Source: a virus
Strand: one strand, 5' to 3'
Virus record (IMG/VR): IMGVR_UViG_3300029319_000004
Coordinates: 1-64,000 of that record
DNA length: 64,000 nt
The position numbers and the translations under genes were made by a program. Positions within the stretch are counted from its first letter, which is position 1. Each line of letters opens with the position of its first letter. Under the pieces are notes generated by a model, which was given only the letters and a program-made list of their open reading frames with translations, was not told the origin of the DNA and made no database searches. Positions 3,330-22,642 of the stretch are shown one piece after another.

Positions 3330-3752
3330 ATGAAACTAGATAACGAAAAGCTTAAGAATATGGTCATGGAAGTCATGATATCTATCCTAGAGGAAGACGA
3401 AGGCAAGATTATATGCCCTAATTGTGGCCATCATAATGATGCTGACGTTGATAAGTGTTCGAACTGCGGCCACTCTAGAAGCAAAGGCAACTGGAAAAAA
3501 GCAAAAAAAGAAGAAATGCAAGAAGCCTTACCAGCCGCTGCAGCTGCTTTAGGTACAGCCGCCAAAGGTTATGCGGCAGGTGAGGCAGCGGATAGTGTTG
3601 CTAGCAAAGGTATAAAAAAAGCAAAAGAAATGCTTCGTCTAAGCGATCCTAAATCAATGGATAAAGGATCCCGCATTGCTTTGCAAAAAATATCTAGACT
3701 AACCAAAAGAGTTGAAAGGATTGAAACCGCACTAAAGAGGATTTTACCATAA
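3330..3752 (+). CDS. zinc-ribbon protein with class B-like leader
   Basis: A 140-residue protein. Residues 1-22 form a class B-like helix ending in L-E-E. Residues 29-48 hold two CxxC knuckles (CPNCGHH and CSNCGHS), a typical zinc ribbon. An alanine/glycine-rich stretch (about 67-92) and a basic C-terminal helix follow. Zinc ribbons can bind nucleic acid or protein, so the partner is unknown. Its stop overlaps the next ATG by one base. Confidence 0.7.
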   Translation: MKLDNEKLKNMVMEVMISILEEDEGKIICPNCGHHNDADVDKCSNCGHSRSKGNWKKAKKEEMQEALPAAAAALGTAAKGYAAGEAADSVASKGIKKAKEMLRLSDPKSMDKGSRIALQKISRLTKRVERIETALKRILP

Positions 3753-5365
3753 TGAAAACAAAAGTACTTTTTGAAAACTGGCGCCACCATTTAAAAGAAG
3801 CTAAATCTGATCGCGAGATTTTAGATGCCGCGGCCAAAGCTTTGGATGTGTCGACCAAAGAATTAATCAGCATGGGTCCGCTTGAGGCAGAATTTGTAGC
3901 TGATTTTCTAGAAAAAAAAGGGCTTGATGACGCGATAAAGATACTTCGACGTCGATCCGAGGTGTGGGCTAGCGTCGACGCAGCTGAAGACGAAGCTTCT
4001 CGCGAGCGTCTTGCTCTTCGACAAAGAAGAGCAGATGCGCAAAAAGCCGGCCGATCGGAACCCCAAGACGGTGTAAGAGATCCGCTTAACCCTCTTGGGA
4101 CAGCGCCCATGGGTAGCGGTGAAGATCAATCCTTAGCAGATTATAAGGCCGGCCGCGTACAAAGAGCTATAGATAAGAAGAAAGCTAAGGAGCTTGCTGC
4201 AAAAAAAAGAAAAGCATTTTTGAGAGGCGCTCGGTCTAAAGCCTTTTTAGACCTCAAAAAATCGAAAGGACCTGCAACCTCTGCCCAGCCGGCTTCGAGG
4301 CCGCGGGTGCGGCCGTTGGAGGAAGAATCTTATCGCATGGTAAAAGATCCGATTAGCGGCAAGCGCAGAATGATGCGAAGCGATGAGCTTGGCGATGCCA
4401 TGGCGCAGGTTGATGATGAGCTGCCTTTGACAGCTGCTTTCCCTTGGATGCAAAGCGTTATCGACGATCTTAAAGACGACGAGTTTCCTGATAAGGAAAA
4501 AGCTATACAAGCTTTAGCAAAACAATTAGGCATGTCTATCAAAACTATGCCTTCTGACATGGATGAGGAACCAACAATGAGCGAAGTAAAGACAATATCG
4601 AAAAAGAAATTCGAAACAACTCTAGAGAACCTTGTGTTTGAAGAACTAGCTAGAGTTTTTATGGAACAAGAAAATCAACCTTCGGAAAAAGAATTGAAAG
4701 AAATTGCTGCGCGAATAATGAATTCCGTTAATAAAATTTTAAAATCAAAGAAAATATACACTCGGACCGGGCCAAGTGTCGGCAATTTTGAATATGACTA
4801 TGCTTTGGGAATAATGGGGGTGAAGCTTGGTAAAACAGTTTTAGAATTATCAAAAGTAGCCGGCTACAAGCTTGCGAGCCTTGAAAGTTTTGTTGCAAAA
4901 ATGCTCGCGAATATTCCTTCGAACCAGCTTAAAAAGTCTTCGGCCGTTGGTGGTAGCACTCCTTTTATGTTTGTTCCTTACAACGTATGGAAGCAACAAC
5001 AAATAGCAGCGCATAAATCGCTTATGAATCAACTTTCGAAAAAAAGAGCTGAAAAGAAAAAGAAGAGCAAAGGTAAGGACTCTCAAGGGGTTACAAGGAA
5101 AGATGTACTTAATTACCTAGACAGCGTTTTTCCTAATTTATCCAAAGATCAAAAAAGTCGACTTCTAGCTTTTGATGGATCCATAAGAAGAGTTGATGGT
5201 AAGAGTATTTTTACCCCTTCGGATAAAATGAAAAAAATGTTTCCTAACGCTAAGCCAGTTCAAGTCTCTGGGCCACGGATAAACGACGCAGATACATTAG
5301 CTATTTTAAAAGCCGCAGGTAAGCCAACAATGCCCACAACGCGTCGGACCGCCGGAGCGGATTAA
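3752..5365 (+). CDS. large class A leader protein with internal class B segment
   Basis: A 537-residue protein of unknown fold. It begins with the class A leader KVLFENWRHHLKE and is followed by helical, Arg/Lys/Ala-rich sequence up to about residue 200. A class B-like segment (TISKKKFETTLENLVFEE) lies near 282, directly after an in-frame ATG (residue 276) that has its own GAGGA. The C-terminal half (310-537) looks globular, with a basic patch near 430-445. It could be one precursor cut at several L-x-E sites, or two overlapping products. No enzyme motif is recognised. Confidence 0.75.
   Translation: MKTKVLFENWRHHLKEAKSDREILDAAAKALDVSTKELISMGPLEAEFVADFLEKKGLDDAIKILRRRSEVWASVDAAEDEASRERLALRQRRADAQKAGRSEPQDGVRDPLNPLGTAPMGSGEDQSLADYKAGRVQRAIDKKKAKELAAKKRKAFLRGARSKAFLDLKKSKGPATSAQPASRPRVRPLEEESYRMVKDPISGKRRMMRSDELGDAMAQVDDELPLTAAFPWMQSVIDDLKDDEFPDKEKAIQALAKQLGMSIKTMPSDMDEEPTMSEVKTISKKKFETTLENLVFEELARVFMEQENQPSEKELKEIAARIMNSVNKILKSKKIYTRTGPSVGNFEYDYALGIMGVKLGKTVLELSKVAGYKLASLESFVAKMLANIPSNQLKKSSAVGGSTPFMFVPYNVWKQQQIAAHKSLMNQLSKKRAEKKKKSKGKDSQGVTRKDVLNYLDSVFPNLSKDQKSRLLAFDGSIRRVDGKSIFTPSDKMKKMFPNAKPVQVSGPRINDADTLAILKAAGKPTMPTTRRTAGAD
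4565..4579 (+). promoter_or_regulatory. internal ribosome site and in-frame start
   Basis: GAGGA at 4565-4569 sits seven bases before an ATG at 4577 that is in frame with the surrounding gene and opens a class B-like segment. It could give a 262-residue C-terminal product. This is inference from spacing only. Confidence 0.45.
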
Positions 5366-6174: not shown

Positions 6175-6366
6175 ATGAAAATCACACAAAAAGAATTAAA
6201 ACATATTGTACAAGAAGAACTTACATCGATTATTAATGAAGCTTTTCCTGATATTGGTCGCGACTATAAAAAAATACCTGTTAAGCCAACAATTGAGGAT
6301 ACACTTGAAGATATCTTAAGGCGCTTAAACACAATAGAAACTAAACTTAAAATAAAAAGAGGATAA
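6175..6366 (+). CDS. short class B leader protein
   Basis: A 63-residue protein with strong AAGGAG upstream. More than a third is the class B leader (MKITQKELKHIVQEELTSII, then N-E-A); the rest is a short charged helix. If cleaved after I-N-E, the mature peptide would be only about 40 residues. No known domain. Confidence 0.7.
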   Translation: MKITQKELKHIVQEELTSIINEAFPDIGRDYKKIPVKPTIEDTLEDILRRLNTIETKLKIKRG

Positions 6367-6507: not shown

Positions 6508-6795
6508 ATGAAAATTACAAAACAAGAATTACATCAAATAATATCTGAAGAGATCTCCGCTGCTGTGTTATCATTAGCAGAGTCAAAACTAGACAAGGTG
6601 AACTGGGATAGAATATCTTCAAGATATAAAGCTGTCTTGCTTCACAAAGGAGACGTCGACGCGAAAGATGTTGACAATATCGTACAACAAAAAATATCAG
6701 TTGCTAAAATGCAGCCAAATGGATTAGAAGATCTTAGAAAAGATGTGTTAAAAATATATAATTTTGACATAACAGACAACAAGGAGACAGCATGA
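6508..6795 (+). CDS. hypothetical protein with class B leader
   Basis: A 95-residue protein. I chose the ATG at 6508 because it opens a near-perfect class B leader (MKITKQELHQIISEEIS); upstream in-frame codons overlap the cysteine-rich gene. The body is helical and charged. It overlaps the next gene by four bases. Function unknown. Confidence 0.7.
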   Translation: MKITKQELHQIISEEISAAVLSLAESKLDKVNWDRISSRYKAVLLHKGDVDAKDVDNIVQQKISVAKMQPNGLEDLRKDVLKIYNFDITDNKETA

Positions 6796-7019
6796 ATATA
6801 TCAAAATCTAGATTGATACAAATTATTAAAGAAGAAATTGACATTTTTGAGGCCGAAAAAAAGGCTTTGCATGCAGGAGCTTCAAAATACGACAAAGACC
6901 ATCCAGGTAAAAGCTGTGATGAAGCTCATGGTGGCCTTACTCACGAAGAATACTCGGTCGACAGAAAACCAATGCTAACTCGTGAAGAGCAAAAAATGTT
7001 AAGCGAAATGGACTGGTAG
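6792..7019 (+). CDS. hypothetical protein with class B leader
   Basis: A 75-residue protein, coupled to its neighbour by an ATGA overlap. Leader MNISKSRLIQIIKEEIDIFE is followed by a His/Lys-rich segment (GASKYDKDHPGKSCDEAHGG) that looks like a possible metal-binding patch, though this is speculative. Confidence 0.7.
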   Translation: MNISKSRLIQIIKEEIDIFEAEKKALHAGASKYDKDHPGKSCDEAHGGLTHEEYSVDRKPMLTREEQKMLSEMDW

Positions 7020-7045: not shown

Positions 7046-7642
7046 ATGAAAATTAATAAAAAAATATTAGAAGCCTTAATCGAAGAAGAAATTCATACGC
7101 TTATTAAGGAAGGTTTTGCATCGTCTCTTGTGCGAGGGCTAACAAAAGGTGGAAAAAGAAGCAACTTTTTAACAGACTTTCTTTCCTCTACTTTAGTTCC
7201 TCAAGTGGCAAAAAATGCTCATACAGCTGCAAACGATTTAGTAAAAGCTCTAGAGGGAATGAAAAACAATCAACAGTTTTTAGCAATTGCTAGAGATAAA
7301 GATTCTGAGGGTCAACCTGCTTTACCAAATGTGCGAAGCGCGAGGGATGGAAAAAGAATATCTATTCATGGTATGCACAAAGCTGCTAAAGCGATGGTTA
7401 AAGATATAGAAATTATGGCCGCACAACTTGGAGCTGATGCTCCAAAGCTTTCTGGGGATGACGCGCCAGATGCTTCTGAACCTGAAGGCGCGCCTCAGGA
7501 TGCACCTCAGACGCCAGCAGAAGATGCACCAGCCGATGACCGCTTTGGCGGTATCGTTGAAGGGCAAACTATTGATGAATCCATTAACATGCTCAAAAAA
7601 AGAATTAAAGCAAAGTTTAAAAAACTAAAATCTATTTCTTAA
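7046..7642 (+). CDS. hypothetical protein with class B leader
   Basis: A 198-residue protein with a good AAGGAG. The class B leader (MKINKKILEALIEEEIHTLI, then K-E-G) precedes a helical domain (about 25-130). An Asp/Ala/Pro-rich linker (about 130-168) and a basic end follow. The 3' end overlaps the leftward gene at 7632 by 11 bases. Function unknown. Confidence 0.7.
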   Translation: MKINKKILEALIEEEIHTLIKEGFASSLVRGLTKGGKRSNFLTDFLSSTLVPQVAKNAHTAANDLVKALEGMKNNQQFLAIARDKDSEGQPALPNVRSARDGKRISIHGMHKAAKAMVKDIEIMAAQLGADAPKLSGDDAPDASEPEGAPQDAPQTPAEDAPADDRFGGIVEGQTIDESINMLKKRIKAKFKKLKSIS

Positions 7643-8024: not shown

Positions 8025-9920
8025 ATGAGAAAGGCGATTATAGCTTGTTTGATGATGTTATCTGCGTGCAACTCGTGCTCAGAAGCGTTCATGAGCGAGC
8101 CGCCTGCCTACAATCCTGATGTTCCACAAGCTATAAATGATGTAGAAAGTCTAGAAGATGAAGACGCAAAAGAAGAAGTTGTTGACCCCTCTTCTGTATA
8201 TCCATTTCCAAACAATGAGTGCGTTCAGTGTCAGTGGTATTTTTGCCCACCACTAGATTCAGTTTGGCAAAAACAAATATGTATTGATCGATGTGAAGAC
8301 CCGCCAGTTATTTTATATGAGGGCACATGTGAACAATATTTACAGTGTGATCCACAGCAATATCTTTTAGAGCAGGTAGATTGTACAACAGAAGATGGAT
8401 ATCCTGGCACTCAAAACAAAGTTTGTAACAAGGGACAAATTCAGTATACTGACTGTGTAACTGACTGCGAAGAGGAGTCATGTAATTACATAGATGATGA
8501 TTGTGATGGTGAAATAGATGAGGGGCAACTGAATGAATGTAACGAGTGTGGAATCGTTCCGCCGGAACAGTGTAATGGTATTGATGATGACTGCAATGGT
8601 TTTACAGACGAAGACTTAATACAGCCTTGCTATACAGCTTGTGGAGCAGGATTTGAAACATGCTCGGATGGAAATTGGATATCTTGTACTGCTCCTCCAG
8701 AGTTAGAAGAGATATGTGATGGCCTGGATAATGATTGTGATGGTCAAATAGATGAGGATCTTGAGTGTGTATGCACAATACAGGACGTTGGTGTCTTGTT
8801 CCCTTGCGATGAAGATCCTCTTTTATGCGGCCAGGGATATAAAACTTGTCAGTGCATTGATGACACATGCACATCTTTTACTATGTCAGATTGCTTTGCT
8901 TTGTGTTATTGGCTGCCTGATAACAATCAGGTTTGTGATCCTCTTGTGGGAATGCCACTAGAACAAGAAAAATGTAATAACCATGACGATAACTGTAATC
9001 AAGAAATAGATGAAGATCTGTTTGCTTCGTGTTATACAGGACCTGAAGGCACATTGATGGTTGGGATATGTGAGCCTGGCTTGATGACATGTGATGCTGG
9101 CACCTGGGGTAGTTATGAAGAGGAGCAATTTATTCCATTTTACTGTGCTGGTGAAGTCGTACCACAAGAAGAAATTTGCAATGGCATCGATGATGACTGC
9201 GATGGTATTATTGACTGGGGCGAAGAAATGAAAGATACCGATGTTCTTTTTATCGTCGATTGGTCCGGATCCATGAATGATGAAATTGATGCAGTAATGA
9301 TCGCACTTAATCAATTTGCTCAAGATTTTAGTGACGAAGAAGTTATTAAGTGGGGTTTGATTCGTGGACCGGCAGCAATACCTCCTGATTACGATGACGA
9401 AAGATTAGAGTTTTATCAAGAACTAGTAGGGTTCAGCGACTTTCTTAGTTCAATGTCAAATTTAAATTCTGATTCTCCGTCAATGAATACATCTATGGAA
9501 ATGCTTTTAGATGCAATATATTTGTCTGTTAGTAACATTACATCTAATCTTTTTGCAGCCATAGCAGATTTTGAATGGCTAGGAATAGTTAGTCCAAATA
9601 TAAAAGTTGTAGATTCAGAGCCTTCATTAGATAATTTTACAGTGAATTGGAGGCCTGGAGCTGATAGGATAATAATTGTTTTTAGCGACGAACCTCCACA
9701 AAGCTATCTTGTTCCAGAACTGACTGTTGAAGATGTTAAAGGTGCTGTTTCTGGAACTCCTCAGTTAAAACTATTTACATTTTCTAAATCTAATCATAAA
9801 TCAAAGTGGGAAGAGATATCTATTGCTGGCAATGGCGAGTGGTACAAACTTACTAACAATCCTACTGAGATGTATGCTAGCTTAATAAGCATACTTGATG
9901 GCATATGTAAGGAAGAATAA
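8025..9920 (+). CDS. lipoprotein with MopE-type metal-binding repeats and a VWA domain
   Basis: A 631-residue predicted lipoprotein: MRKAIIACLMMLSAC has a lipobox with Cys15. Five repeats of the type CNGIDDDCDGxxDE start near residues 153, 183, 231, 316 and 385; this motif is known from MopE-like proteins of myxobacteria and relatives and is thought to bind metal. From about 405 a von Willebrand A domain begins, with an intact MIDAS start (DWSGS). The protein is very cysteine-rich, so it probably folds outside the cytoplasm. It may change the infected cell surface, or be captured host cargo. GAGGG lies eight bases upstream. Confidence 0.85.
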   Translation: MRKAIIACLMMLSACNSCSEAFMSEPPAYNPDVPQAINDVESLEDEDAKEEVVDPSSVYPFPNNECVQCQWYFCPPLDSVWQKQICIDRCEDPPVILYEGTCEQYLQCDPQQYLLEQVDCTTEDGYPGTQNKVCNKGQIQYTDCVTDCEEESCNYIDDDCDGEIDEGQLNECNECGIVPPEQCNGIDDDCNGFTDEDLIQPCYTACGAGFETCSDGNWISCTAPPELEEICDGLDNDCDGQIDEDLECVCTIQDVGVLFPCDEDPLLCGQGYKTCQCIDDTCTSFTMSDCFALCYWLPDNNQVCDPLVGMPLEQEKCNNHDDNCNQEIDEDLFASCYTGPEGTLMVGICEPGLMTCDAGTWGSYEEEQFIPFYCAGEVVPQEEICNGIDDDCDGIIDWGEEMKDTDVLFIVDWSGSMNDEIDAVMIALNQFAQDFSDEEVIKWGLIRGPAAIPPDYDDERLEFYQELVGFSDFLSSMSNLNSDSPSMNTSMEMLLDAIYLSVSNITSNLFAAIADFEWLGIVSPNIKVVDSEPSLDNFTVNWRPGADRIIIVFSDEPPQSYLVPELTVEDVKGAVSGTPQLKLFTFSKSNHKSKWEEISIAGNGEWYKLTNNPTEMYASLISILDGICKEE

Positions 9921-10413: not shown

Positions 10414-10896
10414 ATGAAGTTAATAATTGAGAACTGGCGTCGGTTTGTCAACGAGAACAAAGAAGAGGATGATAAACCATCTAGCAAAGACATTGAAAAT
10501 GCAATCAATGACAAGCTGGATGCTGAAGGTGGCGCTGCAGGTTTAGATCCTTTAGTTGCTGCGGCAAAAAAAATCGATCCAGAAGTTACAGAAGATGAAG
10601 TTAAGGAAATGCTGGATGCTATGTCCAACGTTGCCCAGCATAAAGAGGGCGACTACATTGACGAGGATGGATTGCAAGAGGCAGTTTCTATCTACCTAGA
10701 AGCAAAACAAGGCATACTTGAAGAGAAAGAAGGAAAAAAAGATGCTTGCTATCACAAGGTAAAAGCAAGATATACGAAAAAAAAAGACGGTAAAAAAGGC
10801 AAGTGGCCGTCAGCGTATGCATCTGGAGCTTTAGTTAAATGCAGAAAAGTTGGCGCAGCCAACTGGGGTGAAGGCGGAAAAAAGAAAAACAAATGA
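10414..10896 (+). CDS. class A leader protein with conserved basic C-terminal domain
   Basis: A 160-residue protein. The ATG at 10414 follows AAGGAG and opens the class A leader MKLIIENWRRFVNE. An acidic helical middle (15-110) leads to a C-terminal domain (about 112-155) with CYHKVKARY and WPSAYASGALVKCRK, a motif I know from many marine phage proteins without a proven function. The split between acidic and basic halves suggests a nucleoid or internal head protein. Confidence 0.8.
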   Translation: MKLIIENWRRFVNENKEEDDKPSSKDIENAINDKLDAEGGAAGLDPLVAAAKKIDPEVTEDEVKEMLDAMSNVAQHKEGDYIDEDGLQEAVSIYLEAKQGILEEKEGKKDACYHKVKARYTKKKDGKKGKWPSAYASGALVKCRKVGAANWGEGGKKKNK

Positions 10897-11642
10897 ATGA
10901 GGCAGATCCAAAAAAAGGAACTGGTAAGAAACCGAAAGGTTCTGGTCGACGTTTGTACACTGATGAGAATCCAAAAGATACAGTCAGCGTAAAATTTTCA
11001 ACCGTTCAAGATATAAAAGATACTCTGTCGAAACAGTCTTTTAAGTCTAAATCTCACAAGCGCCAATCACAAATAATAAATTTAATACACCAAAGAGTTA
11101 GGGTCGCTAAAGGAAGAACAAAAGACCCTGTTAAGAAAAAAAGACTTGCAGCTGCTTTTAAATATATTAGCAAAAGGAAAGAAGCAAGCAAGAGGAAAAC
11201 ACAAAGAATGAAAAACGAATCTTTATATTTAGAAAAAATTATATTAGAAGAACTAGAAAACATTCTTGATGAAAGATGTCAAAAGGGATATAAAACACAC
11301 CCCAAACGTAAGACTAAAAAAATGTTCGGGAGAACATACAGAAACTGCGTTAAAGCAGAGGGTGTCGAAGAAGATGATATTCTAGACGAAGAATTAGAAG
11401 AAGATCTTAATAAGTGGTTTAGACAAAACAAAGGAACAGGCTGGGTAGACTGCAATACTTGTCGAAAAGACAAGAAAACAGGTCGTAAAAAATGCAGCCC
11501 TTGTGGTCGTAAAAAACGCTCTGGTGGAAAAAGAAAAAGATATCCCGCGTGTCGTCCAACACCAGCTGCTTGTGGAAAAAGAGGTAAGTGGGGCAAAAAA
11601 TCTAAAGCTGAAAAAAGGCGAAAAAAGAAGAGGAAGCAGTAA
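10893..11642 (+). CDS. highly basic protein with internal class B segment
   Basis: A 249-residue, extremely Lys/Arg-rich protein overlapping the previous gene by four bases. Residues 1-100 are basic and helical. An in-frame ATG at residue 106 begins MKNESLYLEKIILEELENIL, a class B segment. The C-terminal 60 residues hold cysteine pairs (CNTCRKD, CSPCGRK) within Lys/Arg, plausibly a zinc-binding, DNA-contacting tail. Charge and context suggest DNA condensation in the head, but other nucleic-acid roles are open. Confidence 0.7.
   Translation: MNEADPKKGTGKKPKGSGRRLYTDENPKDTVSVKFSTVQDIKDTLSKQSFKSKSHKRQSQIINLIHQRVRVAKGRTKDPVKKKRLAAAFKYISKRKEASKRKTQRMKNESLYLEKIILEELENILDERCQKGYKTHPKRKTKKMFGRTYRNCVKAEGVEEDDILDEELEEDLNKWFRQNKGTGWVDCNTCRKDKKTGRKKCSPCGRKKRSGGKRKRYPACRPTPAACGKRGKWGKKSKAEKRRKKKRKQ
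11191..11210 (+). promoter_or_regulatory. internal ribosome site and in-frame start
   Basis: AGAGGA at 11191-11196 lies 11 bases before an in-frame ATG at 11208 that opens a class B segment. It could give a 144-residue product containing the cysteine-rich basic tail. Confidence 0.35.
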
Positions 11643-12643
11643 TGAAAATTACAAAATTTGAATTAGAAAAAATTATTAAAGAAGAAATTCAAGATTTGCA
11701 AGAAATTGATTTTTTAAAGAAAATTTTTGGAAAGTCTAAAGATACAAATGATACCGATGATGATTTTGGCGCCGAAGAAAAACAAACTAAAAAAATGTTA
11801 ACTCCGCCTCAAGCAGGACCGGTTAAGCTAAAGTACCCAATCGACTATTGTCGTAAATTAAGCAGAGATGCGCTAGAAGGCGATACCAAACATCCACAAT
11901 ATGCAAAATTTATGAAACGATGTCAAGAATTATCGCAAAATCGCGATCCAGATTTTATTGCGCGTCTTCAAGGTGAAGAAACCGCAGAATGGGCGCCTGG
12001 CTCATCAATGCCTTTTGGAGAGTTTCAGCGACAACATGGATCCTTGGAACAATTCAGTAGCAAACCGGTAAAAGCTGTAGAGCATGTGCTTGATATGGAA
12101 TTCGAAGGAGTAGCTGGCTATAAAGACAGTGCAGCACGATACGATGAATATATAAGTGGAGAATCTTCTTTTCGAAGAGATAAGGGCACAAGTATAAAGT
12201 CTAGTCGCTTCGCTGCTGATAATCTTTCTCTTCCTGGCGGAGGTTATAGTCAGCAGGCTCTCGATCAATATGGCGCCATGCAAGAAAAAATTACAAAATC
12301 ACAATTAAAACAAATTATTTTAGAAGAGTTAGACTCAACGCTAACTGAAATAAATGAAGAGCAAGCTTATTACGAGATGCTAGCTGAAGGTGAAACTATT
12401 GAAGAAGCTATGTATCGAGGCCGCAAAGTTAAACTAAACAAACCAATGCGTGGTGACGTTAAAAAATCTAAAGTTTATGTTAAAAACGCAAAAGGCAACG
12501 TTGTCAAGGTTAATTTTGGAGATAAAAAAATGAAGATTAAAAAGTCAAATCCAAAGCGACGCAAGTCATTCAGAGCTAGGCACAACTGCAAAAACCCCGG
12601 ACCTAAATGGAAAGCAAGATACTGGTCTTGCAAGGCATGGTAA
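11642..12643 (+). CDS. protein with two class B segments and basic C-terminal domain
   Basis: A 333-residue protein, ATG overlapping the preceding TAA. It starts with class B leader MKITKFELEKIIKEEIQDLQ and carries a second copy (KITKSQLKQIILEELDSTL) near residue 216, preceded by an in-frame ATG without a clear ribosome site. The last 75 residues form a basic domain (RGRKVKLNKPMRGDVKKSKV, then RARHNCKNPGPKWKARYWSC) that I recognise as recurrent in marine phages, function unproven. Two leaders in one chain suggest either a fusion of two cargo genes or a precursor processed twice. Confidence 0.75.
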   Translation: MKITKFELEKIIKEEIQDLQEIDFLKKIFGKSKDTNDTDDDFGAEEKQTKKMLTPPQAGPVKLKYPIDYCRKLSRDALEGDTKHPQYAKFMKRCQELSQNRDPDFIARLQGEETAEWAPGSSMPFGEFQRQHGSLEQFSSKPVKAVEHVLDMEFEGVAGYKDSAARYDEYISGESSFRRDKGTSIKSSRFAADNLSLPGGGYSQQALDQYGAMQEKITKSQLKQIILEELDSTLTEINEEQAYYEMLAEGETIEEAMYRGRKVKLNKPMRGDVKKSKVYVKNAKGNVVKVNFGDKKMKIKKSNPKRRKSFRARHNCKNPGPKWKARYWSCKAW

Positions 12644-12647
12644 AATT

Positions 12648-12902
12648 ATGAAAGAACTATTTGAAAATTTTAGAAAATTTATAAATGAAAAAAAATCTGT
12701 CAAACACGATTGAAGTACTCATGGCCATCGTCGGTCCGACGAGACAAAAGAAATTGGAGAAGTTATCAATCATTCGCTAACTGAAAGTGGCAAGATTGAA
12801 TTTTACGAAGTAAAGTTTGGAGATGTTACTGAGGTTTTGGCAGCAGAAGATTTTGTTTCTACAAAAGAACAAACACATGAACATCTAGCAAGAGAGATAT
12901 AA
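12648..12902 (+). pseudogene. class A leader gene interrupted by an in-frame TGA
   Basis: The class A leader MKELFENFRKFINE starts at 12648, but codon 22 (12711-12713) is TGA. The same frame stays open for 62 more codons and ends with TAA at 12900-12902, one base before the next gene. The downstream part encodes a plausible globular sequence (IEFYEVKFGDVTEVLAAEDF) with no own start codon and ribosome site. Either a nonsense mutation or sequencing error has broken it, the stop is read through, or only a 21-residue leader peptide is made. Confidence 0.65.
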
Positions 12903-12903
12903 A

Positions 12904-13329
12904 ATGAAAAAACTATTTGAGAATTTTAGAAATTTTATTAATGAGGTTGAAAAATTAGTCTGCCCTCCTGCAACACAAGATGTAGGCATTAATACAAAAA
13001 ATAGAAACTCAACTAGGCAGAATCATATGTATGGGCCTCTTAACGTTAACGAGCCAGGTGATTATTGGCAAAAGCTCGCACAAAAGTGGGAGACAACAGA
13101 AGAAGCAGCTAGAAAGTCAACCTGTGGTGTTTGTGTTGCATTCGATATATCACCTAGAATGGATGAATGCATGCCTGGGCCTGTTTCAGATGAGTCTGGT
13201 CGCTTAGGTTATTGTTGGATGCATCATTTTAAGTGTCACTCTGCTAGGTCCTGTGATACTTGGGCTATGGGTGGTCCGATTAAAGACGACAAAAAATCTC
13301 AACAATGGCAAGAAAAATCATCTATTTAA
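12904..13329 (+). CDS. cysteine/histidine-rich protein with class A leader
   Basis: A 141-residue protein starting one base after the previous frame closes. Leader MKKLFENFRNFINE is followed by a hydrophilic segment and, from about 85, a Cys/His/Trp-rich domain (TCGVCVAFD, LGYCWMHHFKCHSARSCDTW) that looks metal-binding or disulfide-rich. I have seen similar domains in phage proteins but know no function. Confidence 0.75.
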   Translation: MKKLFENFRNFINEVEKLVCPPATQDVGINTKNRNSTRQNHMYGPLNVNEPGDYWQKLAQKWETTEEAARKSTCGVCVAFDISPRMDECMPGPVSDESGRLGYCWMHHFKCHSARSCDTWAMGGPIKDDKKSQQWQEKSSI

Positions 13330-13340
13330 AAGGTAAACTT

Positions 13341-14048
13341 ATGCATTTAATATTTGAAAACTGGAGAAGATATCTTTTAACAGAGGATCGTCTTAAGCTT
13401 AAACCTGGCCCTAAAGGGTGGGATCTGTATGGCAAGTTAGTTGCAGACGCTTATATAGCTGCTCCAAAATATGACGAAAAAGCAGCTGAAAAGTTTAAAA
13501 AGTTAATTCCTTTTATCGATAACATGTACGAAAAAATACAAAGAGGAAAACAGGGAGTCAAAATAGAATTTGTAGAAGACGATCCTTATCCTGAAGGTGA
13601 TGAGCAGCTTCGTAGAGAAGTTGCCAGAACTGGAGTGTTAAAAGTTTTTAAAGGCGGCACACAACATCCTATTTTTAGCGTTAAGGATGATGACGATGAT
13701 CCTAATGAGCCAGACTCAAATGAAAAATTCAGAGCTATTCATGATGTAATGGCTCATATACAACATGCTGGGCATCAAGGAACTGGCTTTGATATGAAAG
13801 GCGAAATACAAGCTTATAATTCGCATTTACACACAATACCTCCTGATGCAGCTGGCGCGCTCTTTACCGAAGTTATTGGTCAGGCTGCAGTGTTTTTAAA
13901 TTATGGAGAATTTCCAGAACAAAAAATAGCTTTATTGCCTGGTTTTGATTATTTTAATCTTGGTGTAGTCGATGGTTACGATATTGTAAATAAACAATTA
14001 GTTAAAAAAGGCGAGGAGGCTGCAGATCAAGATGAAGGTTCTATTTGA
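13341..14048 (+). CDS. class A leader protein with conserved His/Glu-rich domain
   Basis: A 235-residue protein. The ATG at 13341 opens MHLIFENWRRYLLTE; an upstream in-frame ATG lies inside the previous gene. The body is globular, and its conserved-looking core has IHDVMAHIQHAGHQG followed by GEIQAYNSHLHTIPPDAAGA. The histidines and acids could form a metal site, although no known enzyme signature fits. The stop lies inside the next gene (17-base overlap). Confidence 0.7.
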   Translation: MHLIFENWRRYLLTEDRLKLKPGPKGWDLYGKLVADAYIAAPKYDEKAAEKFKKLIPFIDNMYEKIQRGKQGVKIEFVEDDPYPEGDEQLRREVARTGVLKVFKGGTQHPIFSVKDDDDDPNEPDSNEKFRAIHDVMAHIQHAGHQGTGFDMKGEIQAYNSHLHTIPPDAAGALFTEVIGQAAVFLNYGEFPEQKIALLPGFDYFNLGVVDGYDIVNKQLVKKGEEAADQDEGSI

Positions 14049-14415
14049 AAACTGGCGAAAATATATAAATGAGGCATGTTGTCCTGATAAAATTCCCAAC
14101 TCAAACGTTGATTTGCGCCTTATGCCTTCAAAAATACATGGCAAGGGAATATTTGCAGGAGAAAAAATTCTAAAAGGGACGGACTTGGGTGTGTCACACA
14201 TTAGAAGAAAAGGAATATGGACGATACCAGATTTAGGTCGATGGCACAACCATTCTGATAATCCAAGCTGTCATAATACTCTAGATGGGTCGATGAAAGA
14301 TAAAACATACACTAGAAACCTTATAGCCTCTAGAGATATTGAACCTGGAGAGGAAATTACGGTAAACTATAGACTACAGCCAGACCTTGAACAACCAGGA
14401 GCATGGGCTATATGA
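14032..14415 (+). CDS. SET-domain protein with class A leader
   Basis: A 127-residue protein: class A leader MKVLFENWRKYINE, then a compact SET domain. HGKGIFA (36-42) matches the SAM-binding start, WHNHSDNPSCHN (71-82) corresponds to the N-H-S-x-x-P-N signature, and GEEITVNY (106-113) to the E-E-[IL]-x-x-x-Y end. SET proteins transfer methyl groups from S-adenosylmethionine to lysines. The catalytic Tyr of GEEITVNY is present. The usual NHS is HNHSDNP, so the core is conserved. Substrate is unknown; a host protein is one possibility if it is injected. Confidence 0.8.
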   Translation: MKVLFENWRKYINEACCPDKIPNSNVDLRLMPSKIHGKGIFAGEKILKGTDLGVSHIRRKGIWTIPDLGRWHNHSDNPSCHNTLDGSMKDKTYTRNLIASRDIEPGEEITVNYRLQPDLEQPGAWAI

Positions 14416-15416
14416 AATTATTAATTGAAAACTGGAAGCGCTACTTAGAGGAGGAAGCTAGTCCTGCAGCACAAGGTCAAAAAAATATGACCTTAGTAGT
14501 GCCAAAATTTAGAATTTCTGAACAGTGGGGAACTCCGGGCTCTCAAGATAGAAAAATTATAGAGTTGTTTACTTCAAAAATAAAAGGCTCAACTTTAAAA
14601 GAGAAAATATCTTCTCTAAATGGTTTTGTATCAGAATGTGACGCCGCATGTGCTGCAACAAAAGAGGTATCAGAAATATTAGCAAATTTAGTTTTTTTAG
14701 ATTCTTTAGCATCCGTCATATACGATTTTAATCCAATGACAGGCGGCTTCCTATTCGAATCTTTAATAGCTGCGCTTCTTGGCGGAGAGGCTAAACAGGT
14801 TGAAACTGGCTCCGGAGCAGATCAGGATGTTACAGATGTTATTGACCATAATGGCCGTCCTTTAAGTTTAAAATTCTTTTTTGAAGGAGGATCACAATAT
14901 ATTCATGGGTCTTTTTGGAATTTAAAAAGAGATATAAAAAGACATAATCAACCCATGGTTTATTTAATTGGTTTAAAAAATAGAAATCACAAGGATAGAA
15001 AAGTTTTAGCTATTGATTTTTATGAATTTACAGTTGGCGATAATAAAGAAGGAATACGTGGAGATTATGATGTTGGTGACATAGGCTATGGAAATGGCTT
15101 GCCAATATCTTATATTATTGGTGCAAAGCCTAGGGGTCGTCCAAGACGAGGCGAGGAAGGAAAACCTAGACAAAGATTTAAAAAAACTAGTTATTATTTA
15201 GGCACTTTAGACTTTGGAGATAGAGATAAGATGATTGAAGTTGCGCAATCATACGCAAATAGATTAGGATCTTTAATGCTAGAAATTTATCAACAAATAG
15301 ACGAATTAAGCAAAAATGTCAATACATATTTCTTAGAATCTCCAGACGCAAAAGACGCTGCTATGGCAGCTCGTGCAAATGCTGAGACTCTTAAAAAAGA
15401 TGCAGAGGAACTGTAA
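14412..15416 (+). CDS. PD-(D/E)XK-like nuclease fold with class A leader
   Basis: A 334-residue protein. The chosen ATG at 14412 opens MKLLIENWKRYLEE and overlaps the SET gene by four bases. Residues 111-160 read GGFLFESLIAALLGG, then QDVTDV (138-143) and LSLKFF (151-156), matching the E...D...(S/E)xK layout of PD-(D/E)XK enzymes, with E116, D139/D142 and K154 as candidates. That fold cuts or repairs DNA. The normal acidic residue before x-K is Ser here, so activity is uncertain. The C-terminus is helical. Confidence 0.65.
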   Translation: MKLLIENWKRYLEEEASPAAQGQKNMTLVVPKFRISEQWGTPGSQDRKIIELFTSKIKGSTLKEKISSLNGFVSECDAACAATKEVSEILANLVFLDSLASVIYDFNPMTGGFLFESLIAALLGGEAKQVETGSGADQDVTDVIDHNGRPLSLKFFFEGGSQYIHGSFWNLKRDIKRHNQPMVYLIGLKNRNHKDRKVLAIDFYEFTVGDNKEGIRGDYDVGDIGYGNGLPISYIIGAKPRGRPRRGEEGKPRQRFKKTSYYLGTLDFGDRDKMIEVAQSYANRLGSLMLEIYQQIDELSKNVNTYFLESPDAKDAAMAARANAETLKKDAEEL

Positions 15417-15419
15417 TTA

Positions 15420-16949
15420 ATGAAGCTTTTATTCGAAAACTGGAGGAGGTTCATAAATGAAGACGAGGATGATGAAGAAAACGTTCTTGATCTTTCAAAA
15501 GAGCTTGATTCTGGGTTTTGTGATTTTAATCCTCTGATTAATCAATATGCACAATATTCTCCTGATAGTCTAGCTGAAATGTTAATATTTGTTGTCGCTA
15601 CTCAGCAAATGCGCTGGTATGATGTTGTTCCAAAGTTTCCTATAATGATGCAGCATATACGCGATAATGATATGTTGTTGAACCCAAGAGATGCCAAAGT
15701 TAATGAAAAAGGAAAAACTGTTTATAATATTCCAAAAGCTTTTGCACAACTAACTTTAGGCTTTCGAAAGAATGCAATTCAATCGATATGGCAAAGTCGA
15801 GAAATGATATTTTCTACAATGTCTCCTCTTTTTGCTAAGTACAACGCAGCTAGTGGTAATTCTCTAGAGAAAGAAGAGGCGGTGTTTCAAATTTATTTAG
15901 AATTAATCAAGCTTCCAGGTCTTGGTTTACCGAAGGCTGCTTTTGCATCGCAGCTGTTAATTGGACGACTAGGCTGCATTGATTCTATTAATTTAAACCT
16001 TTATAAAGGATTGGATCCTGAAGGCAAACTTATTACCTATGACAGCAAGGGCCGACCAACTTTTAAAACACCAGGCGTATCTAAAAAAGCAGGGATTGTA
16101 CAAGTTACAAAAGGTGGTGTAAAATTAGCTAAAGAATATGTTCAATTTTTAAAACAAATTGCCAAGCTAACAGGATCTACAGAAGCTAGTATTTCTAGAA
16201 AATTATGGGATTCTTGGGTTGAATTAGTGGCTCTAAAAATTAATAAAAAAGGTGATATTAATGTTATAATGCCGGGTGGAGAAAAATTTACCGTTCCCAA
16301 TGACTATTCAAAAAATATTAAAGGAGCAGAAACAAATCCCTCTGCTGCGTTTCGTAAACAATACATAGGAAAAATTACACCACAAGATGTGTCTAGGCAG
16401 CATTTTCCAAAACAAATGTATGAGGGGCTACGTAAGTGGTCTAATTATGTTGATAGATTATTAAATGAAAATGTTGAAATAGCGCCCCGGGGATCCCTAG
16501 CTGGTACGGGAGGAGATATTGGCACAGCAGTCCCTGGATCGATTGCATACATAATGCAAAGTTTTAAAAAATATAATAATGATGCAGAACCCGACGACAA
16601 GAGAGTTGCAAAAGCAGTAATGCATAGGAATGGAAAAATTCTTCTTTTAGTAAATGATAGGGGCTACGATTTACCGGGTGGACATTTAAAAAGGGGAGAG
16701 CACCCCATTGCTGGTTTAAAAAGAGAAGTTGAAGAAGAAACAGGGTTAACAATTCCAACTCCCGAAATAAAGGATTTATTTTTCATAAAAGGAAACAAAA
16801 GATTTTATTCGTGTCCTTTTATGAGAGATGACATTGTTTTAAGCGATGAGCATTCCTCATATGAATTTGTCGATATTGATGATTTAGACTCAATAGAGAT
16901 ATCAAAAAGTTTCAGACAGGCGATAAAAAAAGCTTTAGGTGTTGAATAA
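15420..16949 (+). CDS. class A leader, helix-hairpin-helix-like region and Nudix domain
   Basis: A 509-residue protein with three parts. MKLLFENWRRFINE is the class A leader. A helical domain (about 30-300) contains LPGLGLPKAAFASQLLIGRL near 165-184, which looks like the HhH of DNA glycosylases. A C-terminal Nudix domain (395-509) has the full box: G421-x5-E427 and REVEEETGL (435-443). Nudix enzymes cleave nucleoside diphosphate-linked compounds such as ADP-ribose, NAD or damaged dNTPs. The catalytic glycosylase Asp was not pinned down, so the middle domain may be non-catalytic. Confidence 0.75.
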   Translation: MKLLFENWRRFINEDEDDEENVLDLSKELDSGFCDFNPLINQYAQYSPDSLAEMLIFVVATQQMRWYDVVPKFPIMMQHIRDNDMLLNPRDAKVNEKGKTVYNIPKAFAQLTLGFRKNAIQSIWQSREMIFSTMSPLFAKYNAASGNSLEKEEAVFQIYLELIKLPGLGLPKAAFASQLLIGRLGCIDSINLNLYKGLDPEGKLITYDSKGRPTFKTPGVSKKAGIVQVTKGGVKLAKEYVQFLKQIAKLTGSTEASISRKLWDSWVELVALKINKKGDINVIMPGGEKFTVPNDYSKNIKGAETNPSAAFRKQYIGKITPQDVSRQHFPKQMYEGLRKWSNYVDRLLNENVEIAPRGSLAGTGGDIGTAVPGSIAYIMQSFKKYNNDAEPDDKRVAKAVMHRNGKILLLVNDRGYDLPGGHLKRGEHPIAGLKREVEEETGLTIPTPEIKDLFFIKGNKRFYSCPFMRDDIVLSDEHSSYEFVDIDDLDSIEISKSFRQAIKKALGVE

Positions 16950-17840
16950 ATGACAAAATCACAATTAAAATCAATTTTGATCCCTTTGATAGAAGATGTA
17001 CGCGCAAAACTTAGAGAGGCGTATTGTATTGATTCGGATGTTGATTGCAACAAAATAGGAAAAGCTAGGGTAATAAAGTATTCAAATATTTCATCTAACA
17101 ATCCAAAACAATATTATCATGATGTATATGTTCCCAAAATTGAATCAGCAATAAATACACCTGTAACCATTTACTCAGAATCCGCGATGACAACCAAGTA
17201 TGGTGTTCACCCCATGGGTTTTTTCGTTCAGAGAAAGATTATTGGTGTCTATGATGATATATTCTATTTGTATAAGGCAAAATATAACCCTAAGTCAATG
17301 AAAAACTTTCGTCCTTACTTAAAATATATTCTTTATCATGAATTTGGACACGCAATTGATGTAGCTCTAAACGACATATCGCAAACAGAAAAATATAAAT
17401 CTTCGATTAAAAAAGCTGCAAGAGGTGGAGTAATTTCAAACATGAACAGGAGTGATGCTGAATATTTTTCTCCTGATGAGGATTATGGCGTCTCTGAGCT
17501 TTGGGCTGAAATCTCTGCCATACAAGATCACTTTAATACTGCTTTTGTATTGAAAGATATAAAAAACTTATGTTTTGTAAAGAAAAATTATAAAAACGGC
17601 AACAGAATTTCCTGGAAAGAAGGTAGGCAAAAAGAAATTTTAAAACAAGCAGATCAAGCAAGGAAAAAAGGTAACTCACAAGAAGAATCACGACTTAAAG
17701 AACTAGCAAAAGAGTATGAAATAACAAAAGGTGATTTTTTATTACAGTCGCCGGCTGTACAAAGATTTTTAAATTGTAGTGACATGCCTGGTACACTGCA
17801 AAGATGGAAAACAATTGAATTGCAATTTAAAAAAGCATAA
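16950..17840 (+). CDS. zinc metallopeptidase-like protein (HEFGH) with class B leader
   Basis: A 296-residue protein beginning at the base after the Nudix gene stop. The N-terminus MTKSQLKSILIPLIEDV is a class B variant ending in L-R-E. Residues 130-134 are HEFGH, the HExxH zinc site, followed by A-I-D; a downstream Glu in ELWAEISAIQDHF is a candidate third ligand. Zincins with this pattern cleave proteins. The target and whether it acts in the virion or the cell are unknown. Confidence 0.7.
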   Translation: MTKSQLKSILIPLIEDVRAKLREAYCIDSDVDCNKIGKARVIKYSNISSNNPKQYYHDVYVPKIESAINTPVTIYSESAMTTKYGVHPMGFFVQRKIIGVYDDIFYLYKAKYNPKSMKNFRPYLKYILYHEFGHAIDVALNDISQTEKYKSSIKKAARGGVISNMNRSDAEYFSPDEDYGVSELWAEISAIQDHFNTAFVLKDIKNLCFVKKNYKNGNRISWKEGRQKEILKQADQARKKGNSQEESRLKELAKEYEITKGDFLLQSPAVQRFLNCSDMPGTLQRWKTIELQFKKA

Positions 17841-17860
17841 ATTAAAAACTATTTAAAGAC

Positions 17861-18250
17861 ATGAAACAAGAAACAAAACTACAATTACTTGATAAACTTA
17901 GAAAAGAAAATCCAGAACTTGTTAAAAAAATAATGACAGTAGAGGATTTATCTAATTATACAACCGAAAGAGAAGCATTTCGTGCGGCAAGAGGAAAAGG
18001 AATACTAAAATTTCTTTATACTGGTGCAGATGGAAAACGAAAACAAAAAACGACTCGTTTAAAAACAGAGACTGAAATGGCTCATTTAGAGGCCATGATT
18101 GAAAGAGCAAAAAAATCACAAACAACTGGTGAGCCTGCGGCAGAGCCCTTATTAGAGGCAAAAATAAGACCAAATGCTCTTAAGAAAATTATTCTTCAAG
18201 AAATTAATTCAGTCATTTCTGATATTTTGAAAAAAAAGAAAAATGCTTAA
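17861..18250 (+). CDS. hypothetical protein with class B-like C-terminus
   Basis: A 129-residue Lys/Glu-rich protein. The first 95 residues include a short beta-rich stretch (ILKFLYTGADGKRKQKTTRL). The last 30 read ALKKIILQEINSVISDILKK, the class B pattern at the C-terminus rather than the N-terminus. It overlaps the HAD gene by eight bases. Function unknown. Confidence 0.65.
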   Translation: MKQETKLQLLDKLRKENPELVKKIMTVEDLSNYTTEREAFRAARGKGILKFLYTGADGKRKQKTTRLKTETEMAHLEAMIERAKKSQTTGEPAAEPLLEAKIRPNALKKIILQEINSVISDILKKKKNA

Positions 18251-18803
18251 AAAATGGAAACAGTTTTTATCTGAATCTAAACTTCGTATTTTTGATTTTG
18301 ATGATACTTTAGTCAAAACTGACGCACGTGTTATAGTCACATATCCAGACGGAAAAGAAGAAAGCTTGACGCCTGGTGAATATGCAGTACACGAAATTGA
18401 CGAAGAAAATGAATACGACTTTAGTCAGTTCGAACAATCAAATCTTATAAACCCAAGAGAGATTGAAAAGGTTACAAACGTATTAAGAAATGTTCTAGGT
18501 GCTTCCGGTGACAGAGATATTGTTATTTTAACGGCTAGACCACCATCTTCGCAAAATGCAATATTAGACTATTTAAAAGAAATAGGTATTGATAGCCAGA
18601 CAATTGAGATTGTCCTTTTAAATTCATCAGATCCATATTCTAAATCAAACTGGATTGAGAATAAGATAGTTGATGGAGCTAACGACATATTATTTCTTGA
18701 TGATTCTGGCAAAAATGTCGACGCAGTAAAAGAGCTAAAAGCTAAATATCCAAATATTAAGCTTGATGCTAGAAAAGTCGACTATGCAGAGGAGATAGAA
18801 TAA
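18243..18803 (+). CDS. HAD-superfamily phosphatase with short class A-like leader
   Basis: A 186-residue protein. MLKKWKQFLSE is a shortened class A leader, followed directly by the HAD motif I RIFDFDDTL (nucleophile D18, acid D20). VILTARPP near residue 98 is motif II-like, and LFLDDSGKNVDAV near 156 is motif IV with the metal-binding Asp pair. HAD enzymes hydrolyse phosphate esters, in phages often nucleotide or nucleic-acid ends. The cap is small. Substrate unknown. Confidence 0.8.
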   Translation: MLKKWKQFLSESKLRIFDFDDTLVKTDARVIVTYPDGKEESLTPGEYAVHEIDEENEYDFSQFEQSNLINPREIEKVTNVLRNVLGASGDRDIVILTARPPSSQNAILDYLKEIGIDSQTIEIVLLNSSDPYSKSNWIENKIVDGANDILFLDDSGKNVDAVKELKAKYPNIKLDARKVDYAEEIE

Positions 18804-19664
18804 ATGGGATGGCTCACAAACAGATATAATAAAAAAACATCAAAAAAATACGGTTGGCTACCTTCTTGGTTTGGAGAGGATTTAGATAGCTTTGATTCAG
18901 ATTTAGAAGCAGCGATTAAAGCTTTTCAAAAAGACCATGATTTAAGTGCAGATGGAAAAGTCGGACCTATGACTTATAGAAGGGTGCTTCTAGCAAGACA
19001 AGTGGAAGAAGAAGAAAACAATCTTGTTGACTACATTTTAGTTAATGGCTCAAAAATTCATCTTGGTTGGGATGTTAAAATAAATTTGATGTCTAAAAAA
19101 TGTTATAGAACCTGGAAGAGAGAAAGAAGTCCAAACATGATCGTTACTCATTGGGACGCTACGACTTCAGCAGATAGATGCAAGCGAGTTTTAGAAAACA
19201 GAAATATCTCAACTCACTTTTGCATTGATAACGACGGTGTAATTCATCAATACGTCGACACTAACCATGTTGCTTGGCATGCTGGCAGAGTAAATTCAAA
19301 ATCTATAGGAATTGATTTTTCTAACGCTTATTATTTAAAGTACGCTGACTACTACGTAAAAAAAGGGCTCACAAAACGTCCCATCTGCAAAGACAGTGTT
19401 GTACATGGTGTTAAGCTTAAGCCTCATCTTGGATACTATAATGTTCAAATTGGAGCTTATAAAAAACTGCTTAATGTTTTGTGTGATCATTATGATATAA
19501 ATATAGATACCCCAAGAACAAAGTCAGGAGGCTTGTATACTGGAGTCGTCAAAGAAGCCGCAAATGGTAAATATAATGGGGTTGTTTGCCATTATCATTT
19601 AACAAGAGGAAAGATTGATTGCGCAGGTCTTAAGCTTGATAAGATTGTTGATGAGTTGAATTAA
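18804..19664 (+). CDS. endolysin: peptidoglycan-binding domain plus N-acetylmuramoyl-L-alanine amidase
   Basis: A 286-residue lysin. Residues 30-65 form a peptidoglycan-binding domain (AIKAFQKDHDLSADGKVGP). An Amidase_2 domain covers about 80-285: THWD (H116 as zinc ligand), STHFCID (137-142), VAWHAGRVNSKSIGID (157-172), and a C-terminal CHYHL segment with the further ligands. It cuts the amide between muramic acid and L-alanine to release phage. No signal peptide is seen, so a holin is needed; TM proteins follow within 1 kb. Its 3' end overlaps a leftward gene by 35 bases. Confidence 0.9.
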   Translation: MGWLTNRYNKKTSKKYGWLPSWFGEDLDSFDSDLEAAIKAFQKDHDLSADGKVGPMTYRRVLLARQVEEEENNLVDYILVNGSKIHLGWDVKINLMSKKCYRTWKRERSPNMIVTHWDATTSADRCKRVLENRNISTHFCIDNDGVIHQYVDTNHVAWHAGRVNSKSIGIDFSNAYYLKYADYYVKKGLTKRPICKDSVVHGVKLKPHLGYYNVQIGAYKKLLNVLCDHYDINIDTPRTKSGGLYTGVVKEAANGKYNGVVCHYHLTRGKIDCAGLKLDKIVDELN

Positions 19665-21559: not shown

Positions 21560-22642
21560 ATGGCAGTAAAAGTTGTTGATGGTAGCAGTGTGCATAGAAA
21601 TTTTGATGGAATATTAAAATCTTTTCTTCCATATGCAAAAGACAAGCTAGGGTATAACAAACCAGTTGATATACAGCTAGTATCGGATCCTCACAATGCA
21701 AAAGATCCATTTGGAAAAACTGCTTACTATGACCCAAGCTTAATGAAGATAACTGTTTTTGTTGATAAGCGACATGTAAAAGATATTTTAAGATCAATTT
21801 CACATGAGCTAGTTCATCATAAACAAAACTGTGAAGGTAGGTTATACTCACCAGCAGGTGAAGGTTATGCGCAAAATGATCCTAATTTAAGAGAAATGGA
21901 AGCGGAAGCCTATTTAGAAGGTAACGGATTTCTTGTTAGAGATTTTGAAGACAAACTCAAAGGAGACAAACAAATGAGAAGCAGAGTCTTGGATGAAAAA
22001 ATTAAAAAAACTGTAAGAAAAATAATTGCAGAAGTTAATAAAATAGCAGAACAAGATGCTATGGAAATGGGTAATGAGCCTGCAGGTTCTATGGAGGATG
22101 ATTCTATTCAAGCAGCTTTAGAGCCTATTGTTGGCGCTGACAAAGTTGCAGAAGTTATGGCTGCTCTTGCTTCAGCTGGAGTTGAGCTTCCAATGAAAGA
22201 AGCTGATGTAAAAAATCCAGGACCCTACATTGATGGACCTAGGGCGAAAGCTGGTGTTGATGATGATGGTGATGGGGTTCCAAACAAAGCAGATAAAAAC
22301 TCCACCGATGGTGATATTCAAGAAAAAATGAAAAAAGATTCTCCTGACCGTCGACCTTCTGATACTCCTTCTGATCGTCTTAGACCGCTGGAGGAGAAAG
22401 ATGACAAAAAGGATGTCGAAGATGAAGAGCAGTACAATCTTCGCACTGCAAAATCTGTAGGCGAGAAAAAGCCAAAAGAAAAAAAGAAGCAGGTTGCAAA
22501 AGATGAGGGCCTTAAAGAAGATATGCATGAAGAGGACGAGGATGTTAAAGAAGGTCCCGCTGTATACATGCAAGAAAACTGGGTGCGCAAACCCTTAAAC
22601 GAGAGAATTTACAAAACACTAATCAAAAAATGGTGTAAATAA
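21560..22642 (+). CDS. zincin (HELVH) with internal class B segment and acidic, DxDxDG-bearing tail
   Basis: A 360-residue protein. AGGAGG precedes the chosen ATG. Residues 82-86 are HELVH and EMEAEAYLE (about 112-120) offers the third zinc ligand, as in small phage zincins. At residue 139 an in-frame ATG with its own AAAGGAGA opens a class B-like segment (LDEKIKKTVRKIIAEVNKIA). Further on, DDDGDGVPNKADKNSTDGD (about 234-252) resembles a thrombospondin-3-type calcium loop. The C-terminus is highly charged. Possibly two products from one gene. Confidence 0.7.
   Translation: MAVKVVDGSSVHRNFDGILKSFLPYAKDKLGYNKPVDIQLVSDPHNAKDPFGKTAYYDPSLMKITVFVDKRHVKDILRSISHELVHHKQNCEGRLYSPAGEGYAQNDPNLREMEAEAYLEGNGFLVRDFEDKLKGDKQMRSRVLDEKIKKTVRKIIAEVNKIAEQDAMEMGNEPAGSMEDDSIQAALEPIVGADKVAEVMAALASAGVELPMKEADVKNPGPYIDGPRAKAGVDDDGDGVPNKADKNSTDGDIQEKMKKDSPDRRPSDTPSDRLRPLEEKDDKKDVEDEEQYNLRTAKSVGEKKPKEKKKQVAKDEGLKEDMHEEDEDVKEGPAVYMQENWVRKPLNERIYKTLIKKWCK
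21959..21976 (+). promoter_or_regulatory. internal ribosome site and in-frame start
   Basis: AAAGGAGA at 21959-21966 lies about eight bases before an in-frame ATG at 21974 opening a class B segment. It is one of the strongest ribosome sites in the region and could give a 222-residue product lacking the zincin domain. Confidence 0.55.

What the first reader, a model, noticed from the sequence alone, without database searches (positions are those of the whole stretch)
10414..18803. Class A leader set on at least eight consecutive diverse genes
Genes at 10414, 12648, 12904, 13341, 14032, 14412, 15420 and 18243 (plus 3752) start with variants of FENW-[RK]-[RK]-[FY]-[IL]-x-E. Conservation is confined to the first 11-16 residues and the following sequences differ completely, which looks like a modular tag copied or maintained by selection, not shared ancestry of the whole proteins.
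Basis: seen in the sequence. Interest (0 to 1): 0.75.

Follow-up and report, generated by a model that had tools for sequence, protein, structure and literature searches.

The report
Capsid-targeting tags on phage cargo genes
Seven or eight unrelated genes in this large uncultured phage start with the same 14-residue address tag, which matches the T4 signal that loads proteins into the forming head and is then cut off, so these genes probably encode proteins the phage carries in its head and injects into its host.

Summary
Seven genes (3752, 10414, 12904, 13341, 14032, 14412, 15420) carry the tag. A profile scores them 20-37 bits; no other stretch of the called genes of the 180,711-bp phage record exceeds 6.6. 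18243 has a shortened form. 12648 is interrupted by TGA after 21 codons. The genes are not strictly consecutive. The tag (consensus MKLLLENWRKYLNE) sits on about 210 ORFs and about 135 unrelated passenger families in uncultured viral contigs.

Its fixed positions, aromatic-x-x-aromatic-[IL]-x-E, coincide with those shown by T4 mutagenesis to direct internal protein III into the prohead (Y4, F7) and allow gp21 processing (I8, E10). The phage encodes a gp21-like protease and a gp23-like capsid protein with an L-x-E site.

Best explanation: a capsid-targeting propeptide that loads cargo (SET, Nudix, HAD, HiPIP-like proteins) into the prohead and is removed after E14. No virion proteomics exist, so loading and cleavage are inferred.

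New features: a leader class absent from ten named phage records tested; exchange with a second tag class or a C-terminal position within one protein family; and, in relatives, a 26-nt DNA cassette starting exactly at ATG before 19 unrelated passenger families.

The parts
3752..3799 (+). class A leader MKTKVLFENWRHHLKE on a 537-aa gene (3752-5365), no family hit
   Evidence: 26.3 bits; Pfam and PHROGs silent
10414..10455 (+). class A leader MKLIIENWRRFVNE on a 160-aa Lys-rich gene (10414-10896)
   Evidence: 33.2 bits; passenger matches phrog_727 E 2e-17, unknown function
12648..12689 (+). class A leader MKELFENFRKFINE on an interrupted gene (TGA after 21 codons)
12904..12945 (+). class A leader MKKLFENFRNFINE on a 141-aa Cys-rich gene (12904-13329); relatives annotated high potential iron-sulfur protein
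   Evidence: 19.7 bits
13341..13385 (+). class A leader MHLIFENWRRYLLTE (one-residue insertion keeping L-x-E) on a 235-aa gene; domain shared with Rhodococcus phage E3 gp205 structural protein
   Evidence: 30.1 bits
14032..14073 (+). class A leader MKVLFENWRKYINE on a 127-aa SET-domain gene (14032-14415)
   Evidence: PF00856, 2e-12; 32.4 bits
14412..14453 (+). class A leader MKLLIENWKRYLEE on a 334-aa gene (14412-15416), weakly restriction-endonuclease-like fold
   Evidence: (30.9 bits); leader modelled as a low-confidence helix (2-15) followed by a low-confidence linker
15420..15461 (+). class A leader MKLLFENWRRFINE on a 509-aa gene ending in a NUDIX domain (15420-16949)
   Evidence: PF00293, 1e-9; 36.5 bits
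18243..18275 (+). shortened class A leader MLKKWKQFLSE on a 186-aa HAD-family gene (18243-18803)
   Evidence: TIGR01509, 3e-7
6175..6219 (+). associated second tag (class B, MKITQKELKHIVQEE)
6508..6552 (+). class B tag MKITKQELHQIISEE
6792..6836 (+). class B tag MNISKSRLIQIIKEE
7046..7090 (+). class B tag MKINKKILEALIEEE
11642..11686 (+). class B tag MKITKFELEKIIKEE on a basic protein that also holds an internal copy (KITKSQLKQIILEEL)

Best explanation
The leader is a capsid-targeting propeptide of the T4 kind. While the prohead forms, the short N-terminal helix (MKLLxENWRK[FY]) binds the prohead core, most likely the scaffold, and carries any protein fused behind it inside. The phage's gp21-like protease then cuts after the glutamate of [IL]-x-E, releasing the mature passenger, which stays with the DNA and is injected into the next host. 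Shown here: the tag, its conservation, its wide distribution on unrelated cargo, the presence of a gp21-like protease, a gp23-like capsid protein and a T4-like portal, and exchange of the tag with another tag or to the C-terminus. Inferred: binding to the core, cleavage, packaging and injection.
For: (1) The invariant positions W8, [FY]11, [IL]12, E14 align without gaps with T4 IPIII MKTY4QEF7I8AE10 (T4 sequence read), where residues 4 and 7 were shown to target and 8 and 10 to allow processing (PMC9026906). gp21 cuts after L/I-x-E. (2) In 94 leaders not selected by the scan pattern, [ILVM]-x-E follows within 12 residues in 72 (28 expected on shuffling), at the exact spacing in 51 (2.8 expected); spacing shifts of 1-4 residues keep the motif. 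(3) This record has a phrog_207 head maturation protease (E 9e-60), gp23-like major head protein and portal. Related records have the protease in 12 of 21 and in all six longer than 139 kb. The capsid proteins keep LL[KR]E at the place matching the T4 gp23 cut. (4) In 10 loci a class A gene lies within about 1.6 kb of the protease, in eight of them upstream, in the portal-protease interval where T4 has core genes 67 and 68 (T4 order). (5) Passengers are early-effector-like: SAM lyase, Zeta-toxin kinases, GNAT, SET, NUDIX, nuclease, M23, amidase. (6) An 800-aa family carries class A at the N-terminus, or class B, or a class-A-like tag at the C-terminus; T4 Alt is also processed at its C-terminus (PMC9026906).
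Against: No virion proteomics, N-terminal sequencing or targeting assay exists for these uncultured phages. The leader is too short to prove homology to the T4 signal (T4 IPIII scores -27 bits on the class A matrix), so the match is of key positions only. The residue after the cut differs from the T4 internal proteins read here (A after the E in IPII and IPIII); here E is commonest (23%). 22 of the 94 unbiased leaders have no [ILVM]-x-E site in range; some are marginal matches.
Confidence: 0.85

Rival explanations
1. The conserved element acts as nucleic acid: a start-codon DNA or RNA element (translation control or a recombination site), and the peptide is a by-product.
For: In relatives 24-26 nt from ATG are identical in 28 genes with unrelated flanks; an orphan copy is followed at once by a stop and the next start (L084:3537).
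Against: In this window synonymous sites are saturated while residues are kept; other lineages encode the same peptide with different codons; the motif is kept at protein C-termini; the L-x-E site is kept when spacing changes.
Confidence: 0.07
2. A docking peptide for some other phage or host assembly (replication complex, host protease, membrane), not the capsid.
For: Function was not tested; short amphipathic helices commonly serve docking.
Against: Does not predict the gp21-type site, the agreement with T4 targeting and processing residues, or the placement beside head protease genes.
Confidence: 0.07
3. Remnant of gene duplication: the genes descend from one ancestor and only the N-terminus stayed alike.
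For: The genes cluster, and the tags look alike.
Against: Passengers belong to unrelated folds (SET, NUDIX, HAD, Cys-rich), and passenger homologues elsewhere lack the leader.
Confidence: 0.01

Closest known systems
T4 capsid targeting sequence of internal proteins IPI-IPIII and Alt, processed by gp21
   Same: Short N-terminal propeptide starting MK (IPs); aromatic-x-x-aromatic-[IL]-x-E; diverse cargo sharing only the tag; gp21-type protease in the genome; a cargo family with C-terminal tags, as Alt has C-terminal processing
   Different: 14 not 10 residues with an ENW core absent from T4; far wider cargo; a second interchangeable tag class; C-terminal copies resembling the N-terminal tag; a 26-nt DNA cassette in relatives. 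Packaging not shown
P1 DarB N-terminal capsid signal
   Same: N-terminal residues carry a protein into the head for injection (PMC9024508)
   Different: P1 has no separate scaffold; its signal lies in a 250-kDa protein and is not described as a multi-gene tag. Sequences not compared here
SPN3US ejection-protein propeptides
   Same: Head proteins cut by a prohead protease and ejected (PMC5694885, PMC10052503 abstracts)
   Different: Not compared by sequence here; the papers were seen as abstracts only

Membership tests
T4-type capsid targeting sequence (CTS) | N-terminal propeptide of 10-19 residues on otherwise unrelated proteins | tested here: met
   14-15 residues (16 at 3752, 11 at 18243) on about 135 passenger families
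T4-type capsid targeting sequence (CTS) | targeting residues: aromatics at IPIII positions 4 and 7 | tested here: met
   W8 in 97% and F/Y11 in 96% of 185 leaders without insertion, same spacing (partly selected by the motif used)
T4-type capsid targeting sequence (CTS) | processing site [LI]-x-E with D excluded at the last position | tested here: met
   unbiased set: E 62, D 3 of 108 at the site; L/I dominant two residues before
T4-type capsid targeting sequence (CTS) | gp21-type prohead protease in the same genome | tested here: met
   phrog_207 E 9e-60; 12 of 21 related records
T4-type capsid targeting sequence (CTS) | detectable sequence homology to known CTS | tested here: inconclusive
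   T4 IPIII scores -27 bits on the class A matrix; ten named phage records, T4 included, have no pattern match
T4-type capsid targeting sequence (CTS) | cleavage, packaging and injection of the tagged protein | not testable with these tools
   no virion data for these uncultured phages
P1 DarB signal | first 30 residues sufficient for packaging | not tested
   from PMC9024508 only

The most novel reading that the evidence does not exclude
These marine T4-like phages run a cargo-capture system: a roughly 26-nt start-codon DNA cassette is spread by recombination onto newly acquired genes and enlists them as injected proteins. It comes with two interchangeable address tags (A and B) that can also sit at the C-terminus.
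Probability: 0.35. Interest if true: 0.78.

Novelty: new variant of a known kind. Interest (0 to 1): 0.62.

Why it matters
If right, a 14-residue word read from sequence alone predicts which of hundreds of unknown phage genes are carried in the head and injected. That gives a list of candidate host-takeover and counter-defence proteins, including about 130 mostly unannotated families, and makes testable how phages recruit new injected proteins.

Tried and rejected
Mimicry of the capsid protein's own N-terminal arm (LLxKWxxTGLLEG): the matrix does not favour it, as the best MCP window ranks about 100th of 52,000. Fold search with 14412: only weak hits to DpnI and HincII (best E 0.01), nuclease not claimed. 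AlphaFold model of 13341 too poor to use (pLDDT 46). Isolated phages with the tag: none among the ten named records tested (T4, S-SSM7, immuto, Mel-JY01, RM378, E3, DSL-LC01, three uncultured assemblies). 11 apparent leaders were internal starts of the T4-like portal (MTFENWQVCHF) and were excluded. Passenger searches against named phages found no relative for 15420 and the 800-aa family. Literature searches found the T4 and P1 signals but no description of this leader; the library holds only open papers.

Full report
WHAT IS THERE. The window is bases 1-64000 of a 180,711-base virus record. Gene calling over the record and a scan for the motif give seven intact class A leaders: 3752, 10414, 12904, 13341, 14032, 14412, 15420. 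A matrix built from 211 leaders of related contigs scores them 19.7-36.5 bits, and nothing else in the called genes exceeds 6.6 bits. The gene at 18243 has a shortened form; its relatives in L031 and L039 carry the full leader before the same domain. The leader at 12648 is followed by TGA after 21 codons, and the open stretch behind it encodes a relative of a small protein found elsewhere without this leader. The genes are interspersed with genes bearing a second tag, class B (MKITKxxLxxIIKEE), at 6175, 6508, 6792, 7046 and 11642.

CHANCE, SELECTION, COPYING. In the window, where two leaders share a residue, they use the same codon 60 times in 140 against 72.9 expected from genome codon usage. 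Nucleotide identity is 64% within the leader and 29-30% just outside. The peptide is therefore held by selection and the copies are old. In relatives the picture differs: the 26 nt ATGAAACTCCTACTTGAAAATTGGCG are nearly invariant in 28 leaders on 20 contigs before 19 passenger families (24 nt identical in all 28), where codon usage predicts 0.04. Identity upstream is about 0.3 right up to the start codon apart from an A-rich last base, and it falls after nt 26 to what the peptide requires. One copy stands alone, closed by a stop and followed by another gene's start (L084:3537).

DISTRIBUTION. In whole bacterial and archaeal genomes (257 billion bases) it hit three: one contig with several tagged genes, one with the T4-like head gene cluster including the protease, and one stretch of a WOR-3 bin with unclear surroundings. 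About 210 distinct leaders and about 135 passenger families were collected. An alignment of 128 representatives keeps only M1, K2, E6, N7, W8 and E14 (the collection was selected by motif). Ten named phage records, T4 and a cyanophage included, have no match.

WHAT IT MATCHES. T4 internal proteins enter the prohead through a 10-residue propeptide. Mutagenesis placed targeting at residues 4 and 7 and processing at 8 and 10, and gp21 cuts after L/I-x-E (PMC9026906). T4 IPIII reads MKTYQEFIAE; the new leader reads MKLLLENWRKYLNE. Aligned at the right end, Y4, F7, I8 and E10 fall on W8, [FY]11, [IL]12 and E14. To avoid circularity I examined 94 leaders not caught by the scan pattern: 72 have [ILVM]-x-E within 12 residues of W-R (28.3 on shuffling) and 51 at the exact spacing (2.8 on shuffling). 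Where spacing shifts by 1-4 residues the motif moves with it, as expected of a protease site tied loosely to a docking helix.

MACHINERY. The record encodes a head maturation protease (phrog_207, E 9e-60), major head protein (phrog_138) and portal (phrog_213). Of 21 related records, 12 hold the protease, including all six above 139 kb; 9 hold the gp23-like protein; the rest are shorter pieces. The related capsid proteins keep LL[KR]E at the position of the T4 gp23 cut. In ten loci a class A gene lies within about 1.6 kb of the protease: eight upstream, in the region where T4 has core genes 67 and 68, and two just downstream. My rough estimate is that about four would be expected if placement were random.

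CARGO. In the window: SET (14032), NUDIX (15420), HAD (18243); a Cys-rich protein whose relatives are annotated high potential iron-sulfur protein (12904); a domain shared with Rhodococcus phage E3 gp205, annotated structural protein, and with mycobacteriophages (13341); a Lys-rich protein (10414). In relatives: Zeta-toxin kinases, GNAT, SAM lyase, RNase_T, M23, amidase. Homology to leaderless relatives begins after or near the end of the leader. The model of 14412 shows a helix at 2-15, then a low-confidence linker, then the domain.

SWAPS. An 800-aa family has class A at the N-terminus in L024, L028, L033 and L124, class B in L114 (32% identity, E 2e-71, over the body), and no N-terminal class A but a C-terminal tag (NE[SN]hVxxW[KR]x[FY]L at the very end) in most others; L011 has both ends. 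Tag-like C-termini occur in 18 of 788 ORFs against 10 of 13,446 internal windows. The 14412 family has class A in the window and L091, a degraded form in L011, and MSDLKSILNEE in L012 and L013. This positional and class exchange fits an address tag better than any structural role.

LIMITS. No step of packaging, cleavage or injection was observed. The E-rich residue after the cut differs from T4. Homology of the tag itself to the T4 signal cannot be proved from 10-14 residues. Contigs are largely fragments, so counts are lower bounds. The motif used to collect leaders inflates the conservation figures; the unbiased subset is the one to rely on.

Noticed in passing
window 10893-12643; L013:7599-8990: Lys-rich proteins made of several small basic modules separated by acidic LxxIIxEELxxxL stretches, looking like polyproteins that a prohead protease could cut into DNA-associated peptides.
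   Followed up: partly
window 21560-22642: HExxH-bearing protein whose last 25 residues (MQENWVRKPLNERIYKTLIKKWCK) resemble a C-terminal class A tag.
   Followed up: no
window 17861-18250: C-terminus IRPNALKKIILQEINSVISDILKKKKNA resembles a class B tag placed at the end of the protein.
   Followed up: no
L084:3537: Orphan 26-nt leader cassette followed by a stop and at once by the start of the next gene.
   Followed up: partly
26-nt cassette in 20 contigs (e.g. L084:1300, L066, L015): The cassette contains CTCCT, complementary to a Shine-Dalgarno core; possible translational effect not examined.
   Followed up: no
record 156440-158182 (L009:13440-15182): Own paralogue of the 14412 passenger (28% identity in the alignment) with an unrelated N-terminus.
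   Followed up: partly
record 170749-175404 (L010): Many tiny genes starting MKVGDLV/MKVGDIV, a separate repeated N-terminus probably reflecting one small-domain family.
   Followed up: no
window 8025-9920: 631-aa protein with repeated CNGIDDDCDGxxDE motifs and a DTDVLFIVDWSGSM stretch; an analogue lies in the L011 array.
   Followed up: no
window 16950-17840 and 18804-19664: A YHEFGHA putative metalloprotease and an Amidase_2 plus peptidoglycan-binding protein beside the tagged genes; an amidase-like protein in L082 carries class A.
   Followed up: partly
window 30845-31193: Phage-encoded tmRNA with tag ANDNVSFDYALAA.
   Followed up: no
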